A stretch of DNA of 44,467 nucleotides from an uncultured Alphaproteobacteria bacterium. GTDB taxonomy: Bacteria > Pseudomonadota > Alphaproteobacteria > Rhodobacterales > Rhodobacteraceae. Under the pieces are notes generated by a model. That model had not been told where the DNA came from. It saw nothing but the letters and a program-made list of their open reading frames with translations, and did not search any database. Below are positions 24,904 through 44,270 of the stretch, in pieces (the first letter of the stretch is position 1; each line of letters begins with the position of its first letter). The stretch is from contig CACHJY010000011.1 in assembly GCA_902580265.1 (NCBI GenBank), positions 1-44,467 of the forward strand, read 5' to 3'. The position numbers and the translations under genes were made by a program.

Positions 24904-26739
24904 TCAAGAAATTCCTAAGTTAAGTTTCTGTTCTTCAAATAGATCTGCTAATTGTTCTGTCATCGCACCAGCCAGTTGTTCAGCATCTGTAATTGTAACG
25001 GCTCTCTTATAGTACCTGGTTACATCATGTCCAATGCCAATAGCAAGAAGTTGGACTCTATTGGTTGTCTCTATTTTATTTATGACATGTCTAAGGTGTT
25101 TCTCTAAATAGTTGGCAGGATTAACAGACAATGTGGAGTCGTCGACTGGTGCTCCATCAGATATAACTAGCAAGATTTTCCGATTTTCTTCTCTCCTAAT
25201 AAGTCTTTTATGAGCCCATTCTAATGCTTCTCCATCAATGTTTTCTTTCAATAGCCCTTCTTTCATCATCAAACCGAGATTTAACTTTGCCCTTCTCCAG
25301 GGTTCATCAGCATTTTTATATATAATATGTCTAAGGTCATTAAGTCGACCAGGGTTCTTTGGTCGCCCTTGTGATAACCATTTTTCTCTTGATTGCCCTC
25401 CTTTCCATGCCTTAGTGGTAAATCCTAGTATTTCACATTTAACATTACATCTTTCTAGGGTTTTAGCTAATATTTCTGTAGATATTGCTGCTATAGATAT
25501 TGGTCTCCCTCGCATCGAACCTGAATTGTCAATCAATAAAGAAACTACAGTATCCTTGAAATTTGTACTACTCTCTTGTTTGAAACTCAAGGGAGTCGTC
25601 GGGTTTAGTACTACACGTGACAGTTTTGCAGCGTCCAGTAATCCTTCTTCCAGGTCAAATTTCCAAGTTCTGTTTTGTTTAGCCTGAAGTCTTCTCTGAA
25701 GCTTGTTTGCCAGACGAGATACAGCACCCTTTAGAATATCTAGCTGCTGGTCTAAGTACTCTCTTAATTTTTCTAATTCAGTTATATCTGCAAGTTTATT
25801 CGCATTAATTTCTTGATCGCTAGTCACATCAAATACTTGATAATGTACTTCTTTAGTATGGCTACCTTTAATATTTTGGATAATTTCGTTTTCACTTCGG
25901 TCTTCACCCTCAATAGATTCATCAATCTCACTATCCTCTATGTCAGCATCAGCACTGGAGCTTTGTTGAGGTTCGCCATCTTCCGCTTCACTGTTTTCTG
26001 TATCATCATTTTCCTCATTTTCTGATCCTTGTCCCGCCTCTTCTTGTTCCACTTCTTCTTGATTATTCTCGTCTATATCATTTTGTGAATCATCAAGTTC
26101 ACCGAGCTGTTCGCCATATCCAAGTCTTTCAATTAATTTTCTACTAAGAAGAGCAAATTTCTCTTGATCAAAAATATCATCAGTTTTATTAAATTCAGGG
26201 AGACTAGTTAAGTCTTCAAACACTTCCTTTGCATCCAAGAGCTCAGAAGCTTCAGAAGGTAAAGCCAATTCAGATAATTGACGTTTTATGAAATACCTAG
26301 CAAGTTGTGAAATATTTTCTTCTTCTCCTCCCACAGAGTTTTTGCCCATGTATTCTGATGCCTCTACTTTTGTTTTTTGCCAAATGTTTCTCTTTGAACC
26401 GGGATAATATTTTTCTCCAAGTAATTCACACCGTGCTATTTCGAGTTCTTGATATATTTCCTTTGCTTGTTCACCGAATGGATCATATTTTGAATATGTT
26501 TCTTCGTCTTTAAATCTTGATTGTAAAGCCAAAGAGTCTGCTGTTCCTCTGAGCCTTAATATCTCCAAATCGGTCGGTTCTTTACTTATCTGTGGAAGCT
26601 TAATAACTTCGCCATAATCACCACTTGGGTCTGCAGAAAATTTTATTTTAAGGCTTTCATTGCCAGAAATAGCCCTTGTTGTCTCCGATATCGATTTCTT
26701 GATACTGTCAGTTGCCTCAGATTTTTTTTTACTGCTCAT
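24904..26739 (-). CDS. cobT: Cobaltochelatase subunit CobT
   Basis: CobT is the VWA-containing partner of the AAA+ ATPase CobS. In aerobic cobalamin synthesis CobS-CobT drive insertion of Co2+ into hydrogenobyrinic acid diamide by CobN. The C-terminal VWA domain has the intact [18 protein letters not shown] (Asp at 404). A very acidic linker rich in Glu, Asp and Ser lies at about 220-290. The 611 residues fit CobT. It starts one base after the cobS stop. CobN is not in the window, so whether the cell makes B12 cannot be judged here. Confidence 0.93.
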
Positions 26740-35399: not shown

Positions 35400-36128
35400 T
35401 TAATTGGAGTAGCCAATTATCTTCAGTTTATTTTCCAACAAAATCAACTTTTCTGTTTCAAGGATGTTTTTAGTTTTTAATTTTTTATAGACTTTAATGG
35501 CAGGTTGATACTCTTTTCTCTCTAGGTGCTCCAGTGCTACAAAAAAATAGGTATTCTCATTTGAGGGATATTTATTCTTTATATTTTTTAATAATTTAGA
35601 TGCTTCGATTGAGAAACGGCCCCCAGCCGCAATAAGATATGTATCCATCAAAAGAGCATAATCATCTATATTTGAGGCCGACTTTTTTAAAGACAGAACT
35701 TTTTCTTGTGCTAAACGTGCTTCGGAATATTTATTTAAATTCAGACAAGTTCTCACCAGTAAACTGTACCCAATTATGTCACCCGGTCTTTTCAACAGGC
35801 TTTCTCTTAATTTCCTATACAATAAAAGGAGCTTCTCATTTTCATCAGCATTTTTTATAGTATTAAAAGCTTGAATATGGGATAGCTCTAATGTTTTCTG
35901 TGCCAATTGTGGTTGAAGTAGATCAGGTCTTCCTAGCCAAAAATATAGCGAGACAGTTAAAAAAATAAAGGTTGAGAGAGAGAGCAGGTATTTTTTATTC
36001 AGTAGCTGCTCTGTAGAGGATGAATTCTTTTCACTTTTGTCAGCTTTTTGTTTTTTTGAAAAAAAGTATCTATACGACAAAAACAAGCTTGTAAGGATTA
36101 TTACAAATAGTAGAATTAATAAATACAT
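35400..36128 (-). CDS. ccmI: CcmI-like cytochrome c maturation TPR protein
   Basis: This 242-residue protein has two predicted membrane helices (about 1-20 and 47-65) flanking a basic cytoplasmic loop, then a TPR-containing periplasmic part. The topology and the segments YWLGRPDLLQPQLA-like and DTYLIAAGGRFSIEASKLL match CcmI (CycH), which holds apocytochrome c for haem attachment. The family is poorly conserved, so the gene symbol is tentative. No other ccm gene is in the window. It shares a unit with ruvX and is divergent from soxB across 98 bases. Confidence 0.72.
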   Translation of the reverse strand: MYLLILLFVIILTSLFLSYRYFFSKKQKADKSEKNSSSTEQLLNKKYLLSLSTFIFLTVSLYFWLGRPDLLQPQLAQKTLELSHIQAFNTIKNADENEKLLLLYRKLRESLLKRPGDIIGYSLLVRTCLNLNKYSEARLAQEKVLSLKKSASNIDDYALLMDTYLIAAGGRFSIEASKLLKNIKNKYPSNENTYFFVALEHLERKEYQPAIKVYKKLKTKNILETEKLILLENKLKIIGYSN

Positions 36129-40793: not shown

Positions 40794-41334
40794 AATAAAG
40801 GGTGATACATTTGTAGACGTTTATTTAATTGGCTCAATAAAATCCTTAAATATACGAGTGGATCAGAGGGATAAAAAGAGCCTAAATATTATTCAAAAAA
40901 ATATTGGGATTAAGCTTCCATCAGTTCAAAAGGCATTAGAGAAGAATGGTTTAACGCTTTGCTGGATTTCAAATGATGAGTTTCTCTTATTAAATGAAAA
41001 AAGAGAAAAAGATGTGTTGCTTAATGAGTTGCAAAAGCAAATGAACTTAACGACTGGGGTTGCTGAAAACACATCCGATCTAAGAGTATGGTTTTTAATT
41101 AAAGGTGATCGAGCATTAGATATTTTACGGAAGGGTGTTCCAATAGACTTAAGTAATCTCGAAATAACGGAAAGTAATTTTTTCAGAACAAGATTGGGTG
41201 AAATACAAATCAATATTTTAATTAAATCTTCAAATGAAATACTTGTATCGGTTTTAAGGTCTCAAAGAGAATATATGGTTGATTGGTTCGAAGTTTGTAC
41301 AAAGCGCGGAACTGAAATTAATTTTGATCTTTAA
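40786..41334 (+). CDS. soxG: Sarcosine oxidase gamma subunit SoxG
   Basis: SoxG is the GCV_T-like scaffold subunit of the complex. The protein is poorly conserved. Identification rests on position after soxA, the size and segments such as CWISNDEFLLL, TSDLRVWFLIKGDRALDILRKG and NFFRTRLGEIQINILI that follow the SoxG pattern. Two ATGs are possible: 40762 (190 residues) and 40786 (182 residues). I prefer 40786, which overlaps the soxA stop by eight bases and has AGGGGG upstream. Its 3' end overlaps the convergent M48 gene by 17 bases. Confidence 0.9.
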   Translation: MYKIKGDTFVDVYLIGSIKSLNIRVDQRDKKSLNIIQKNIGIKLPSVQKALEKNGLTLCWISNDEFLLLNEKREKDVLLNELQKQMNLTTGVAENTSDLRVWFLIKGDRALDILRKGVPIDLSNLEITESNFFRTRLGEIQINILIKSSNEILVSVLRSQREYMVDWFEVCTKRGTEINFDL

Positions 41335-41671
41335 TTTTAGTCATCCAAGAGGCTTCTAAGTTTTGGATTGCTTTTATTCTTTGCTCAGGAGAAGGATGGC
41401 TAAGTGTCCAAGTAACATTAGATGAAACTATACCCGTTAATTGTTCTAATTTCTTTAGTAAGCTAATTTGTGGAGCGGTACCAATACCAGATTTAATTAG
41501 TAAAGCAGCGGCGTATGAGTCTGCTTCAAATTCATCTTTTCTTGAAAGTCCAGAAATGAGGACTTGAGATAGGTATCTCCCAATTATTGCTCCTATGTAT
41601 GGTAATAACCTACTGAGTATAGTGGAGATCAACATGGAGATTGCGCTTATTGCCGAAAAAGTGATCAGACG
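41318..41671 (-). CDS. M48 metalloprotease, C-terminal part in the -1 frame
   Basis: This is the second part of a split M48 peptidase. Read from the heptamer at 41671-41677 in the -1 frame, it continues the protein with RLITFSAISAISM. It includes the third zinc ligand Glu in RKDEFEADSYAAALL (about residue 163 of a joined product) and the SHPSPEQRI segment typical of the family C terminus. It has an internal ATG at 41635 with a 105-residue product, but that fragment lacks HExxH and could not be a protease alone. A joined protein would be about 233 residues, near the size of small M48 enzymes such as LoiP-type proteases. Confidence 0.75.
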   Translation of the reverse strand, partial: RLITFSAISAISMLISTILSRLLPYIGAIIGRYLSQVLISGLSRKDEFEADSYAAALLIKSGIGTAPQISLLKKLEQLTGIVSSNVTWTLSHPSPEQRIKAIQNLEASWMTKIKDQN

Positions 41672-42018
41672 TTTTTTGTATGTCCTAGGGCTAAGTGCCC
41701 TAGCTCGTGTGCGATAACGGAGGTGAGTTCAACGCCCGAAACCTTGCCTAACTTGTATTGATTGATAAAGCCCTGCGTTATATAGATATTCCCATTGGGC
41801 GTCACTAAACCATTAATTTGTTTATCATTCAGAACGAAAACCTGTAAATTGCGCAAATCAAGTATTGATTGAAATGCTTTTAAATAATTTTCAATCACAG
41901 GGTCATGGAAAATTCGAGATTTTTTCTCAAGCTTCTTGCTTAAATTTCTGGATGAATAAATAGACCCTATGTAAAAGAAGGATATTAACAGCGCTATGGG
42001 AAGAAACTTGGTAATCAT
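41665..42018 (-). CDS. M48 metalloprotease, N-terminal part (frame ends early)
   Basis: This is the first part of a membrane-anchored or exported zinc protease. Residues 3-22 form a hydrophobic signal or anchor, then LQVFVLNDKQINGLVTPNGN and YITQGFINQY follow, and the zinc site HELGH is at 104-108 in SVIAHELGHLALGH. The frame closes at TGA (41665-41667) right after the catalytic helix, before the third zinc ligand, so this product alone should be inactive. The break coincides with an A_AAA_AAC heptamer. It starts five bases after the VWA gene and is the fourth gene of the operon. Confidence 0.8.
   Translation of the reverse strand: MITKFLPIALLISFFYIGSIYSSRNLSKKLEKKSRIFHDPVIENYLKAFQSILDLRNLQVFVLNDKQINGLVTPNGNIYITQGFINQYKLGKVSGVELTSVIAHELGHLALGHTKNV
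41671..41677 (-). other. Slippery heptamer A_AAA_AAC at the M48 frame break
   Basis: In the zero frame of the N-terminal part the codons are ACA AAA AAC GTC TGA. The heptamer A-AAA-AAC has the X-XXY-YYZ form and the right phase. A -1 slip gives AAA AAA CGT CTG ATC and continues into the C-terminal part with family-like sequence. I see no convincing hairpin 5-9 bases downstream or internal Shine-Dalgarno. A one-base homopolymer deletion, biological or from assembly, explains the data equally well. Confidence 0.6.
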
Positions 42019-42023
42019 GTTGA

Positions 42024-43205
42024 TTATGAAAGATGTCTCATTCCCTGTTTTAATCCATTAAGAGTGAGAGGAACCATTTTATCTTCAAATATGTCTTTTA
42101 TAATATGGGTTGAGTGCGTATATTCCCAGTGTTCTTTACTTGTAGGGTTTATCCATAAATAGTTTGGCCATTTTGTAATAGCTCTCTCAAGCCATGTTCT
42201 TCCTGACTCAGCATTATAATGTTCATTGGCTCCTCCCGGATATTCTATTTCGTATGGGCTCATTGAGGCATCTCCCACGAAAATACATCGATAGTCCTTA
42301 CCATATGTATTCATTACTTCTGTTGTAGGTGTTTGTTCAGTCCACCTCCTATGGTTGTTTTTCCACACGCCCTCATAGAGACAATTATGAAAATAATAAT
42401 ACTCGAGATGCTTAAACGCTGTTCTGGCTGCTGAAAATAATTCTTCAACCTGTTTTATATATGCATCCATAGATCCACCAACATCAAAAAATATTATCAC
42501 TTTGATAGAATTTCTACGTTCAGGTCGAGTTCTTACGTCGATAAAACCACTTTTCGCTGATGAGCTAATAGTATTCTCGAGATCTAGTTCTTCATCTGCA
42601 CCATCTCTTGCCCATCGTCTTAGCCTTTTCAGAGCTATTTTCATCCCTCTAGTTCCGAGTTCTATATCACTATCAAAGTTTTTAAATTCTCTTTTGTCCC
42701 AGACCTTAACAGCACGCTTATGCCTGCTTTCTTGTTGCCCAATACGTATTCCCTCTGGATTATATCCGTAGGCTCCAAACGGTGATGTGCCTGCTGTACC
42801 TATCCATTTGTTTCCGCCCTGATGACGATCCTTTTGTTCCTCCAAGCGCTTTTTTAGTGTTTCCATTAGTTTTTCAAAGCTACCCAAGCTGTTTATTTTT
42901 TCCATTTCTTCTTTAGATAAAGTTTTTTCAGCCAGCTTTTTTATCCATTCATTGGGAATTTCAATTTTTTTGAATACTTCTTCTAATTCAATAGACTCGA
43001 GTCCTTTAAATACATGTGAAAAAACTTGATCAAATCTATCGATATGTCTCTCGTCCTTAACAAGTGAAGTGCGGGCTAAGTAGTAAAAGTCGTTTACATC
43101 AAAAATTGCTACACCCGCAGTTAACGCTTCCAAGAACGTCAAATATTCCCTGAGAGAAACAGGGATTTTGGCGTTTTTCATTTCGTCAAAAAGATTTAAA
43201 AACAT
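42024..43205 (-). CDS. CoxE-like VWA domain protein
   Basis: This protein of 393 residues has a helical N-terminal half with a short acidic run and a C-terminal VWA domain. The MIDAS is a variant, FFDVGGSMD, with Asp241 and Ser245 in DxGGS in place of DxSxS; this form is common in the CoxE-like family that works with MoxR ATPases. EHYNAESGRTWLERAITKWP and PYEIEYPGGANEHY also fit. Such pairs are thought to act as chaperone-like activators of metalloenzymes or membrane complexes; the target here is unknown. It lies 12 bases after the small membrane protein gene and 5 before the protease. Confidence 0.85.
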   Translation of the reverse strand: MFLNLFDEMKNAKIPVSLREYLTFLEALTAGVAIFDVNDFYYLARTSLVKDERHIDRFDQVFSHVFKGLESIELEEVFKKIEIPNEWIKKLAEKTLSKEEMEKINSLGSFEKLMETLKKRLEEQKDRHQGGNKWIGTAGTSPFGAYGYNPEGIRIGQQESRHKRAVKVWDKREFKNFDSDIELGTRGMKIALKRLRRWARDGADEELDLENTISSSAKSGFIDVRTRPERRNSIKVIIFFDVGGSMDAYIKQVEELFSAARTAFKHLEYYYFHNCLYEGVWKNNHRRWTEQTPTTEVMNTYGKDYRCIFVGDASMSPYEIEYPGGANEHYNAESGRTWLERAITKWPNYLWINPTSKEHWEYTHSTHIIKDIFEDKMVPLTLNGLKQGMRHLS

Positions 43206-43217
43206 GATGAACCTTTT

Positions 43218-43370
43218 CTACTTACCAAAAATAATTGCAATCACTATACCCAGTACAAAAAACATTATAGAAAGTACTGTAGATCTATGCAAGATATCCA
43301 ATAGTTTACGTTTACGGTTAAACATTATGCCCAAAATCAGGCCAACTATGGTCATTATAAATAAAAACAT
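43218..43370 (-). CDS. Small two-helix membrane protein (50 residues)
   Basis: This small gene was found by reading the 170-base gap between the ATPase and the VWA gene. The ATG at 43370 leads to 50 codons and a TAG. The sequence has a hydrophobic helix (about 2-16), a basic loop NRKRKLLDILHR (18-29) and a second helix (about 31-48) ending in GK, so both ends would lie on the same side of the membrane. It is five bases after the ATPase stop and 12 before the VWA start. It resembles loosely the twin-transmembrane-helix small proteins of alphaproteobacteria; the family is not certain. Confidence 0.6.
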   Translation of the reverse strand: MFLFIMTIVGLILGIMFNRKRKLLDILHRSTVLSIMFFVLGIVIAIIFGK

Positions 43371-43375
43371 TTTCT

Positions 43376-44224
43376 TTAATTACTCTCATTATTCCTTCTG
43401 GCCATAAAAGCAAGCCGTTCAAAAAGATGGACATCCTGTTCGTTTTTTAATAGCGCACCATGAAGCTTTGGTAAAATATTTTTTCCATCCATTTTGAGGT
43501 CATCAGCGTCAAGTTCTTCAACTAACAAGAGTTTAAGCCAGTCTAACATCTCTGAAGTGGATGGTTTTTTCTTTAAACCAGGAACTTCTCTGACTTCAAA
43601 AAACTGATTTAGTGCGGCATCTAATAGATTTTTCTTCACTTTTGGAAAATGAACATTAACTATCTTCTCAAGTACTTCCTTTTCAGGGAATTGAATAAAA
43701 TGAAAAAAACATCTCCTCAGAAAAGCATCCGGCAATTCTTTCTCATTATTTGAAGTAATTATAACAATAGGCCGATTTGATGCCCTTATTGTCTCCCCTG
43801 TTTCGTATACAAAGAACTCCATTTTGTCCAACTCTTGGAGAAGATCATTAGGAAACTCAATATCAGCCTTGTCTATTTCATCTATCAAAAGAACGGTTTT
43901 ACCATCAGTTTCAAAAGCTTCCCAAATCTTCCCTTTTTTGATGTAATTTTTTATGTTTTTAACTCTTTCATCACCAAGCTGACTATCCCGCAATCTGCTT
44001 ACTGCATCATACTCGTATAGTCCTTGCTGTGCTTTTGTTGTAGACTTGATATTCCATTCAATTATTGGAAGCGAAAGACTTTCAGCAATTTGTCTAGCAA
44101 GTTCTGTTTTTCCTGTGCCTGGTTCCCCCTTTACCAAAAGAGGTCGCTCTAGAGTTATCGATGCATTAACGGCCAGAGTTAAGTCATCTGTAGAGATGTA
44201 TTCTGAGGTGCCTTCAAACTTCAT
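43376..44224 (-). CDS. MoxR-family AAA+ ATPase
   Basis: This is a MoxR-type AAA+ ATPase of 282 residues. The Walker A GEPGTGKT is at 33-40, the Walker B is TVLLIDEIDKAD, sensor 1 is IVIITSNNEKELPDAFLRRC and the arginine-finger region follows. It probably forms hexamers that remodel a client together with the VWA protein encoded two genes downstream. The frame opens at a TTG (44245), but the ATG at 44224 is preceded by AAAGGA at good spacing. It is the first gene of the four-gene operon and is divergent from dksA. CoxD of the CO dehydrogenase cluster is a relative, but no cox genes are here. Confidence 0.9.
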   Translation of the reverse strand: MKFEGTSEYISTDDLTLAVNASITLERPLLVKGEPGTGKTELARQIAESLSLPIIEWNIKSTTKAQQGLYEYDAVSRLRDSQLGDERVKNIKNYIKKGKIWEAFETDGKTVLLIDEIDKADIEFPNDLLQELDKMEFFVYETGETIRASNRPIVIITSNNEKELPDAFLRRCFFHFIQFPEKEVLEKIVNVHFPKVKKNLLDAALNQFFEVREVPGLKKKPSTSEMLDWLKLLLVEELDADDLKMDGKNILPKLHGALLKNEQDVHLFERLAFMARRNNESN

Positions 44225-44270
44225 TAATTTTCCTTTCCAATCCAATAAAAATTTTTAAAATCTTATAGTG

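What the first reader, a model, noticed from the sequence alone, without database searches (positions are those of the whole stretch)
41318..42018. M48 protease split at an in-phase A_AAA_AAC slippery heptamer
The HExxH-containing part and the part with the third zinc ligand are in different frames. The switch point is a heptamer with the exact X-XXY-YYZ phase for -1 frameshifting; slipping restores family-like sequence without loss. Neither piece could be an active protease alone. Either the protease level is set by programmed frameshifting, or one A of a homopolymer is missing (mutation or assembly error). The lack of an obvious downstream hairpin weakens the first reading.
Basis: partly seen in the sequence, partly recalled or inferred. 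Interest (0 to 1): 0.7.

Follow-up and report, generated by a model that had tools for sequence, protein, structure and literature searches.

The report
One-base break in protease gene
A protease gene of a marine bacterium is cut in two because a run of A's, one base longer in its intact relatives, is one A short in this contig; this looks like an ordinary small mutation or assembly error, not a programmed frameshift.

Summary
In detail: on the minus strand an M48 peptidase reads as a 117-aa piece with HELGH (42018-41665) and a piece with DEFEAD in the other frame (41671-41318), meeting at an in-phase A_AAA_AAC (41677-41671). The programmed-frameshift reading is not supported. All 17 close relatives read at DNA level cross the site in one frame (13 ACA AAA AAA CG, 3 ACA AAA AAG CG, 1 ACA AGA AAA CG). 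The contig is one A short, and that loss automatically leaves an in-phase A_AAA_AAC. Such heptamers are common here: 179 X_XXY_YYZ, 11 of them A_AAA_AAC, in 42.4 kb of genes. Downstream RNA structure is at chance. The SD-like AGGA also stands in 11 of 16 intact relatives examined. Both pieces look constrained (dN/dS 0.05-0.18), and I found no other split gene in the window. Error or recent mutation cannot be separated without reads. A second public contig ends at the same residues (P0122) but is closer to 13 intact proteins than to the window, so the tract breaks repeatedly.

The parts
41665..42018 (-). N-terminal piece of the M48 peptidase gene (117 aa, HELGH), ends at TGA 41667-41665
   Evidence: Pfam PF01435 34.6 bits, profile 26-81 of 186; aligns with residues 1-115 of intact 233-aa relatives
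41671..41677 (-). A_AAA_AAC heptamer; six-A run at 41672-41677, where 13 of 17 close relatives have seven A
41318..41671 (-). C-terminal piece of the M48 peptidase in the other frame (open from 41671; first ATG at 41635), carries DEFEAD with the presumed third zinc ligand (role of the Glu recalled)
   Evidence: 35.5 bits, profile 119-185; aligns with residues 115-233 of relatives
41683..41686 (-). [quoted passage not shown] present in 11 of 16 intact relatives examined, across Leu-Gly codons
42024..43205 (-). upstream neighbour: vWA-domain (CoxE-like; name recalled) gene, one open frame
   Evidence: 97-98% identical full length in 5 of 5 genomes compared
43376..44245 (-). upstream neighbour: MoxR-type AAA+ ATPase gene (type recalled), one open frame

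Best explanation
This is an ordinary M48-family metallopeptidase gene of an uncultured marine alphaproteobacterium near Rhodobacteraceae, third in a conserved MoxR - vWA - M48 gene order. In this contig its A run (codons Thr-Lys-Lys-Arg just after the HExxH motif) is one A short, which breaks the frame. The shortening is either a sequencing/assembly error (about 0.55) or a recent genuine replication-slippage mutation (about 0.4). If genuine, the gene is a fresh null allele: the 117-aa product keeps HExxH but lacks the third ligand. A little full-length enzyme could leak through by spontaneous slippage on A_AAA_AAC. Shown: the broken frame, intact relatives, no second lesion in the gene, purifying selection on both pieces. 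Inferred: the cause of the lost A, the absence of regulation, the leak.
For: 17 of 17 close relatives (L001-L016, L029; 59-93% protein identity) cross the site in one frame: 13 AAA AAA, 3 AAA AAG, 1 AGA AAA. All 120 proteins listed (of 551 found) continue past HELGH as T-K/R-K-R-L/M. In the genus of G001, 17 of 22 genomes hold a full-length, stop-free copy; by contig coordinates these are the same 17 copies as the loci, so this adds a denominator, not new copies. The other 5 of 22 have no orthologue, nor a match to the neighbouring vWA gene, so they say nothing about loss of this gene alone. The window's pieces keep HELGH and DEFEAD and show dN/dS 0.07-0.18 (N part) and 0.05-0.16 (C part) against 13 relatives; six pairs of intact relatives gave 0.12-0.28 and 0-0.13. 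Window-unique codon changes are 5 synonymous and 2 non-synonymous. No other gene of the window was found split against five syntenic genomes. P0122, with the same truncated end, is closer to 13 intact proteins (best 111 of 114 residues) than to the window (102 of 114), so the loss arose separately. Breaks at other points of the same gene are seen in P0125 and P0164 (both from a contig of 209,712 bases, presumably the same one) and P0156 (54,396 bases), as expected of scattered indels.
Against: The same truncated end recurs in P0122, which a used site would also predict. An AGGA lies at the edge (6 nt) of the stimulatory SD spacing used in PMC4066793; 9 of 89 A_AAA_AAN sites of the window have such an element. 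An in-phase slippery heptamer of some kind stands at the spot in 16 of 17 relatives. No reads were available and no genome is held for the window.
Confidence: 0.95

Rival explanations
1. Genuine recent frameshift mutation (nascent pseudogene or low-frequency null allele) from replication slippage in the A run, rather than an artefact.
For: The contig looks otherwise clean: 63 homopolymer runs of 7 or more lie in its genes (runs in overlapping genes may count twice) and no other split gene was found. P0122 shows the same truncated end in another lineage.
Against: No decay beyond the one base and no relaxed dN/dS. None of the 17 full-length copies in the genus is broken. P0122 comes from a 794-base contig and may itself be an error; its DNA was not seen.
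Confidence: 0.4
2. Sequencing or assembly error in the homopolymer.
For: One missing A in a run with nothing else wrong with the gene. Breaks at unrelated points of the same gene occur in other public contigs (P0125/P0164, P0156). Homopolymer-length errors are called the commonest residual error of long-read-only bacterial assemblies (PMC8812927, start of abstract in the search listing).
Against: Only one such event among 42.4 kb of genes, and the sequencing platform of the window is unknown.
Confidence: 0.55
3. Programmed -1 ribosomal frameshifting, or transcriptional slippage, at A_AAA_AAC sets the amount of active protease.
For: In-phase heptamer; SD-like AGGA 6 nt upstream. A_AAA_AAC, though of low efficiency in E. 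coli, is very likely used by IS elements, and one proven IS case with A_AAA_AAC has no established stimulator (PMC4066793, passages), so a missing hairpin is not fatal. Same truncation in P0122. PMC1088944 notes that slippage may occur on shorter runs in some bacteria (passages).
Against: The heptamer follows automatically from the lost A. The two-frame layout is absent in 17 of 17 close relatives. The downstream fold is at chance (z -0.67), and 70 of 89 A_AAA_AAN sites of the window fold at least as strongly. [quoted passage not shown]
Confidence: 0.03

Closest known systems
Peptidase family M48 (Pfam PF01435), intact orthologues in uncultured marine alphaproteobacteria (L001-L015, L029)
   Same: 82-93% protein identity, same length, same HELGH and DEFEAD, same MoxR-vWA-M48 order
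   Different: one reading frame; the stretch at the site is one base longer
LoiP / BepA type M48 peptidases (NCBIfam NF052399, NF052400; PDB 3c37, 6ait, 6sar)
   Same: related by sequence, tested on the intact relative P0001: LoiP 62.4 bits and BepA 44.3 bits; 3c37 46.2 bits
   Different: far below the curated cut-offs (365 and 570 bits), so not one of these named proteins
A_AAA_AAC -1 frameshifting of bacterial IS elements such as the IS1 family (PMC4066793, passages read)
   Same: same heptamer and phase
   Different: in those IS elements two overlapping ORFs are the layout sought and found across the family; here relatives are in one frame
'Pseudo pseudogenes' kept alive by transcriptional slippage (PMC1088944, passages read)
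   Same: frame broken by one base within an A run
   Different: those cases lengthen an 8-A run to a slippery 9; here the run shrinks to six

Membership tests
Peptidase family M48 | Pfam PF01435 match above gathering score | tested here: met
   each piece passes on its own (34.6 and 35.5 against 20.3 bits)
Peptidase family M48 | HExxH and the downstream Glu ligand in one polypeptide (role of the Glu recalled, from no call) | tested here: not met
   HELGH in the 117-aa piece, DEFEAD in the other frame; both in one frame in 17 of 17 close relatives. As a gene it is an M48 homologue; as read, not expected to be an active peptidase
Programmed -1 frameshift gene | in-phase slippery heptamer | tested here: met
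   A_AAA_AAC, but one of 179 in-phase heptamers in the window's genes and an automatic result of the lost A
Programmed -1 frameshift gene | two-frame layout conserved among homologues | tested here: not met
   0 of 17 close relatives; one separate case, P0122, among 173 fetched proteins besides the window's own. 16 of 17 relatives carry another in-phase heptamer there, with the whole protein in the zero frame
Programmed -1 frameshift gene | downstream stimulatory RNA structure | tested here: not met
   z -0.67, 52 of 200 shuffles fold as well; -5.2 kcal/mol, 70 of 89 sites fold at least as strongly
Programmed -1 frameshift gene | upstream SD-like stimulator 6-17 nt before the motif | tested here: inconclusive
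   AGGA at 6 nt, present in 11 of 16 intact relatives examined; 9 of 89 A_AAA_AAN sites of the window have such an element
Programmed -1 frameshift gene | full-length product made in the cell | not testable with these tools
   needs proteomics or a reporter
Transcriptional-slippage gene | A or T run of about nine or more | tested here: not met
   run of six; length from PMC1088944 (passages), which allows that shorter runs slip in some bacteria

The most novel reading that the evidence does not exclude
In some strains of this marine clade the A run at the Thr-Lys-Lys-Arg of the M48 peptidase toggles between seven and six A's (seen separately in the window and, at protein level, in P0122), so the enzyme exists as on and near-off alleles in the population, with the six-A form giving a trickle of full-length protein by slippage on A_AAA_AAC.
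Probability: 0.04. Interest if true: 0.45.

Novelty: not a real feature. Interest (0 to 1): 0.1.

Why it matters
It shows why an in-phase slippery heptamer at a frame break is weak evidence of recoding. Losing one A from a run aligned as xxA AAA AAA C always leaves one, and an AT-rich genome holds many by chance. Comparing relatives at DNA level settles most of it. If the programmed reading were true, a cellular protease would need -1 frameshifting to be active, but nothing here supports that beyond the motif, one SD-like element and one recurrence.

Tried and rejected
Programmed frameshifting was tested by conservation, stimulators and motif frequency and rejected. An old pseudogene was rejected: no second lesion and no relaxed selection. 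Common descent of the break in the window and P0122 was tested and not supported: 13 intact proteins, of 130 comparable without gaps, are closer to P0122 than the window is. Loss of the gene in the genus was considered because 5 of 22 genomes have no orthologue (G014, G016, G019, G022 no match; G021 only a 31% match), but those five have no match to the vWA neighbour either, so missing assembly is as likely. A six-A pattern search over 394 family genomes found none, but only G001 and G007 of the 22 genus genomes were among those listed and the rest are too distant for the pattern, so it adds almost nothing. The plasmid search gave 10 records, 66-73% identity, each match inside the vWA neighbour and none in the M48 gene. 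The own-genome search was not possible.

Limits of the comparison with five syntenic genomes. In one search only ORFs of 80 aa or more were used, and ORFs whose best match was under 55% identity were dropped before the count; ORFs covered to 90% or more in one piece were 58 of 64, 54 of 59, 50 of 58, 51 of 61 and 54 of 61 with hits. The listed remainder I judged from coordinates to be the M48 gene, antisense or extended spurious ORFs, or genes cut by an end. In one search the gene 24904-26739 is compared only over residues 322-611, because the fetched stretches were cut inside it; its own frame is open over 611 codons. The gene 41-814 continues beyond the contig edge (relatives are 53-67 aa longer at the start). 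The 36 'genes' are my choice among the ORFs, not a gene caller's. The paper search (M48, metalloprotease, programmed frameshift, slippery; at least 3 of 4 terms) listed no paper.

Full report
Observation. The minus strand holds a 117-aa ORF (42018-41665) ending ...HELGHLALGHTKNV* and, in the other frame, a piece open from 41671 to 41318 with DEFEAD; its first ATG gives 105 aa. Each piece passes the Pfam M48 cut-off alone and they match consecutive parts of the profile. The junction is GGA CAT ACA AAA AAC GTC TGA, so A_AAA_AAC lies in the slip phase.

Relatives. A protein search found 551 relatives; all 120 listed carry T-K/R-K-R-L/M straight after the HELGH motif, 119 of them at 227 aa or longer. 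In genome contigs, 17 close loci (L001-L016, L029; 59-93% identity) were read at DNA level: 13 have ACA AAA AAA CG, 3 ACA AAA AAG CG, 1 ACA AGA AAA CG, each in one frame across the site. The records are labelled uncultured Alphaproteobacteria, two of them Rhodobacteraceae (L009, L011); the AG- isolate names I recall as single-cell genomes. In the genus of G001, 17 of 22 genomes have a full-length, stop-free copy (16 at 82-93%, one at 58%); by contig coordinates these are the same copies as the 17 loci. The other five have no orthologue and no match to the neighbouring vWA gene.

Why the heptamer is not evidence. Taking one A from ACA AAA AAA CGT leaves ACA AAA AAC GT, always an in-phase A_AAA_AAC with the old frame at -1. 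Apart from that, the 36 ORFs taken as genes (42,396 bases, overlaps counted twice; G+C of the window 36.6%) contain 179 in-phase X_XXY_YYZ heptamers: 33 A_AAA_AAA, 33 A_AAA_AAT, 12 A_AAA_AAG, 11 A_AAA_AAC and others. Of the 17 intact relatives, 16 also hold an in-phase heptamer at this spot (13 A_AAA_AAA, 3 A_AAA_AAG). There the zero frame gives the whole protein, and in the four checked a -1 slip would end it after 8-20 residues. More distant Rhodobacteraceae loci have Arg codons at these positions and mostly no A run, so the run follows the Lys-Lys codons.

Stimulators. The 82 nt after the heptamer fold at -13.1 kcal/mol, z -0.67, 52 of 200 shuffles as good. The 60 nt starting 4 nt downstream give -5.2 kcal/mol; 70 of 89 A_AAA_AAN sites of the window fold at least as strongly, mean -8.4. 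[quoted passage not shown] It speaks mildly for the rival, but it lies across Leu-Gly codons, is present in 11 of 16 intact relatives examined (L007 was not in that check), and 9 of 89 comparable sites of the window have such an element. PMC4066793 calls A_AAA_AAC a heptamer of low efficiency in E. coli that IS elements nevertheless very likely use, and names one proven IS case without an established stimulator (passages). In PMC1088944 selection against transcriptional slippage shows at nine A or T in a large share of genomes, though shorter runs may slip in some bacteria (passages).

State of the gene. Against 13 relatives dN/dS is 0.07-0.18 for the N part and 0.05-0.16 for the C part; six pairs of intact relatives give 0.12-0.28 and 0-0.13. 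Codons unique to the window against ten relatives are 5 synonymous and 2 non-synonymous. There is no second lesion. The loss is thus recent on this branch, or not real.

Rest of the window. Comparison of relatives' ORFs from five genomes with the window and the reverse shows the M48 gene as the only gene I judge to be split between frames; limits are in Tried and rejected. An ftsL-like frame at 816-1169 is open (name recalled from its place). The genes hold 63 homopolymer runs of 7 or more, so one event is compatible with a sporadic error or a mutation.

Recurrence. Searching with the 117-aa piece found one further protein ending in GHTKNV (P0122, 117 aa, 90% identical, 794-base contig). It and the window's own are the only two of 173 fetched proteins with that end. 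Over residues 1-114 P0122 shares 102 with the window but up to 111 with intact proteins; 13 intact proteins are closer to it than the window is. The same loss therefore seems to have arisen twice, as mutations or as errors; the DNA of P0122 was not seen. Breaks at other points of this gene are seen in P0125 and P0164 (contig length 209,712 for both, presumably one contig) and P0156 (54,396 bases).

Context. MoxR-type AAA+ - vWA - M48, convergent with a sarcosine-oxidase-gamma-like gene (names partly recalled), is the order in 17 of 17 close loci; a vWA relative lies in the 3 kb upstream of M48 in 39 of the 41 further loci L017-L058 (L029 excluded) and in 0 of 21 of L059-L079. An intact relative (P0001) scores far below the LoiP and BepA cut-offs, and its nearest solved relative by sequence is 3c37 (46.2 bits).

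Verdict. An ordinary one-base contraction of an A run, error (about 0.55) or recent mutation (about 0.4). Programmed recoding about 0.03. Only reads can separate the first two.

Noticed in passing
window 41318-44245 (-): MoxR-type AAA+ - vWA - M48 gene order, conserved in 17 of 17 close loci, with a vWA relative near M48 in 39 of 41 further loci; a possible functional trio.
   Followed up: partly
P0125 and P0164 (209,712-base contig), P0156 (54,396-base contig): The same M48 gene is frame-broken at other positions in other public contigs.
   Followed up: partly
window 35400-36128 (-): Similarity to relatives stops after residue 214-221 of 242 in five of five genomes compared, although the lengths are close; possibly just a diverged C terminus.
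   Followed up: no
G014, G016, G019, G021, G022: Five of 22 genomes of the genus have neither an M48 orthologue nor a vWA match: incomplete assemblies or loss of the cluster.
   Followed up: no
L050: A contig labelled Oceanobacillus sp. carries this alphaproteobacterial M48 and vWA pair; probably a wrong label or contamination.
   Followed up: no
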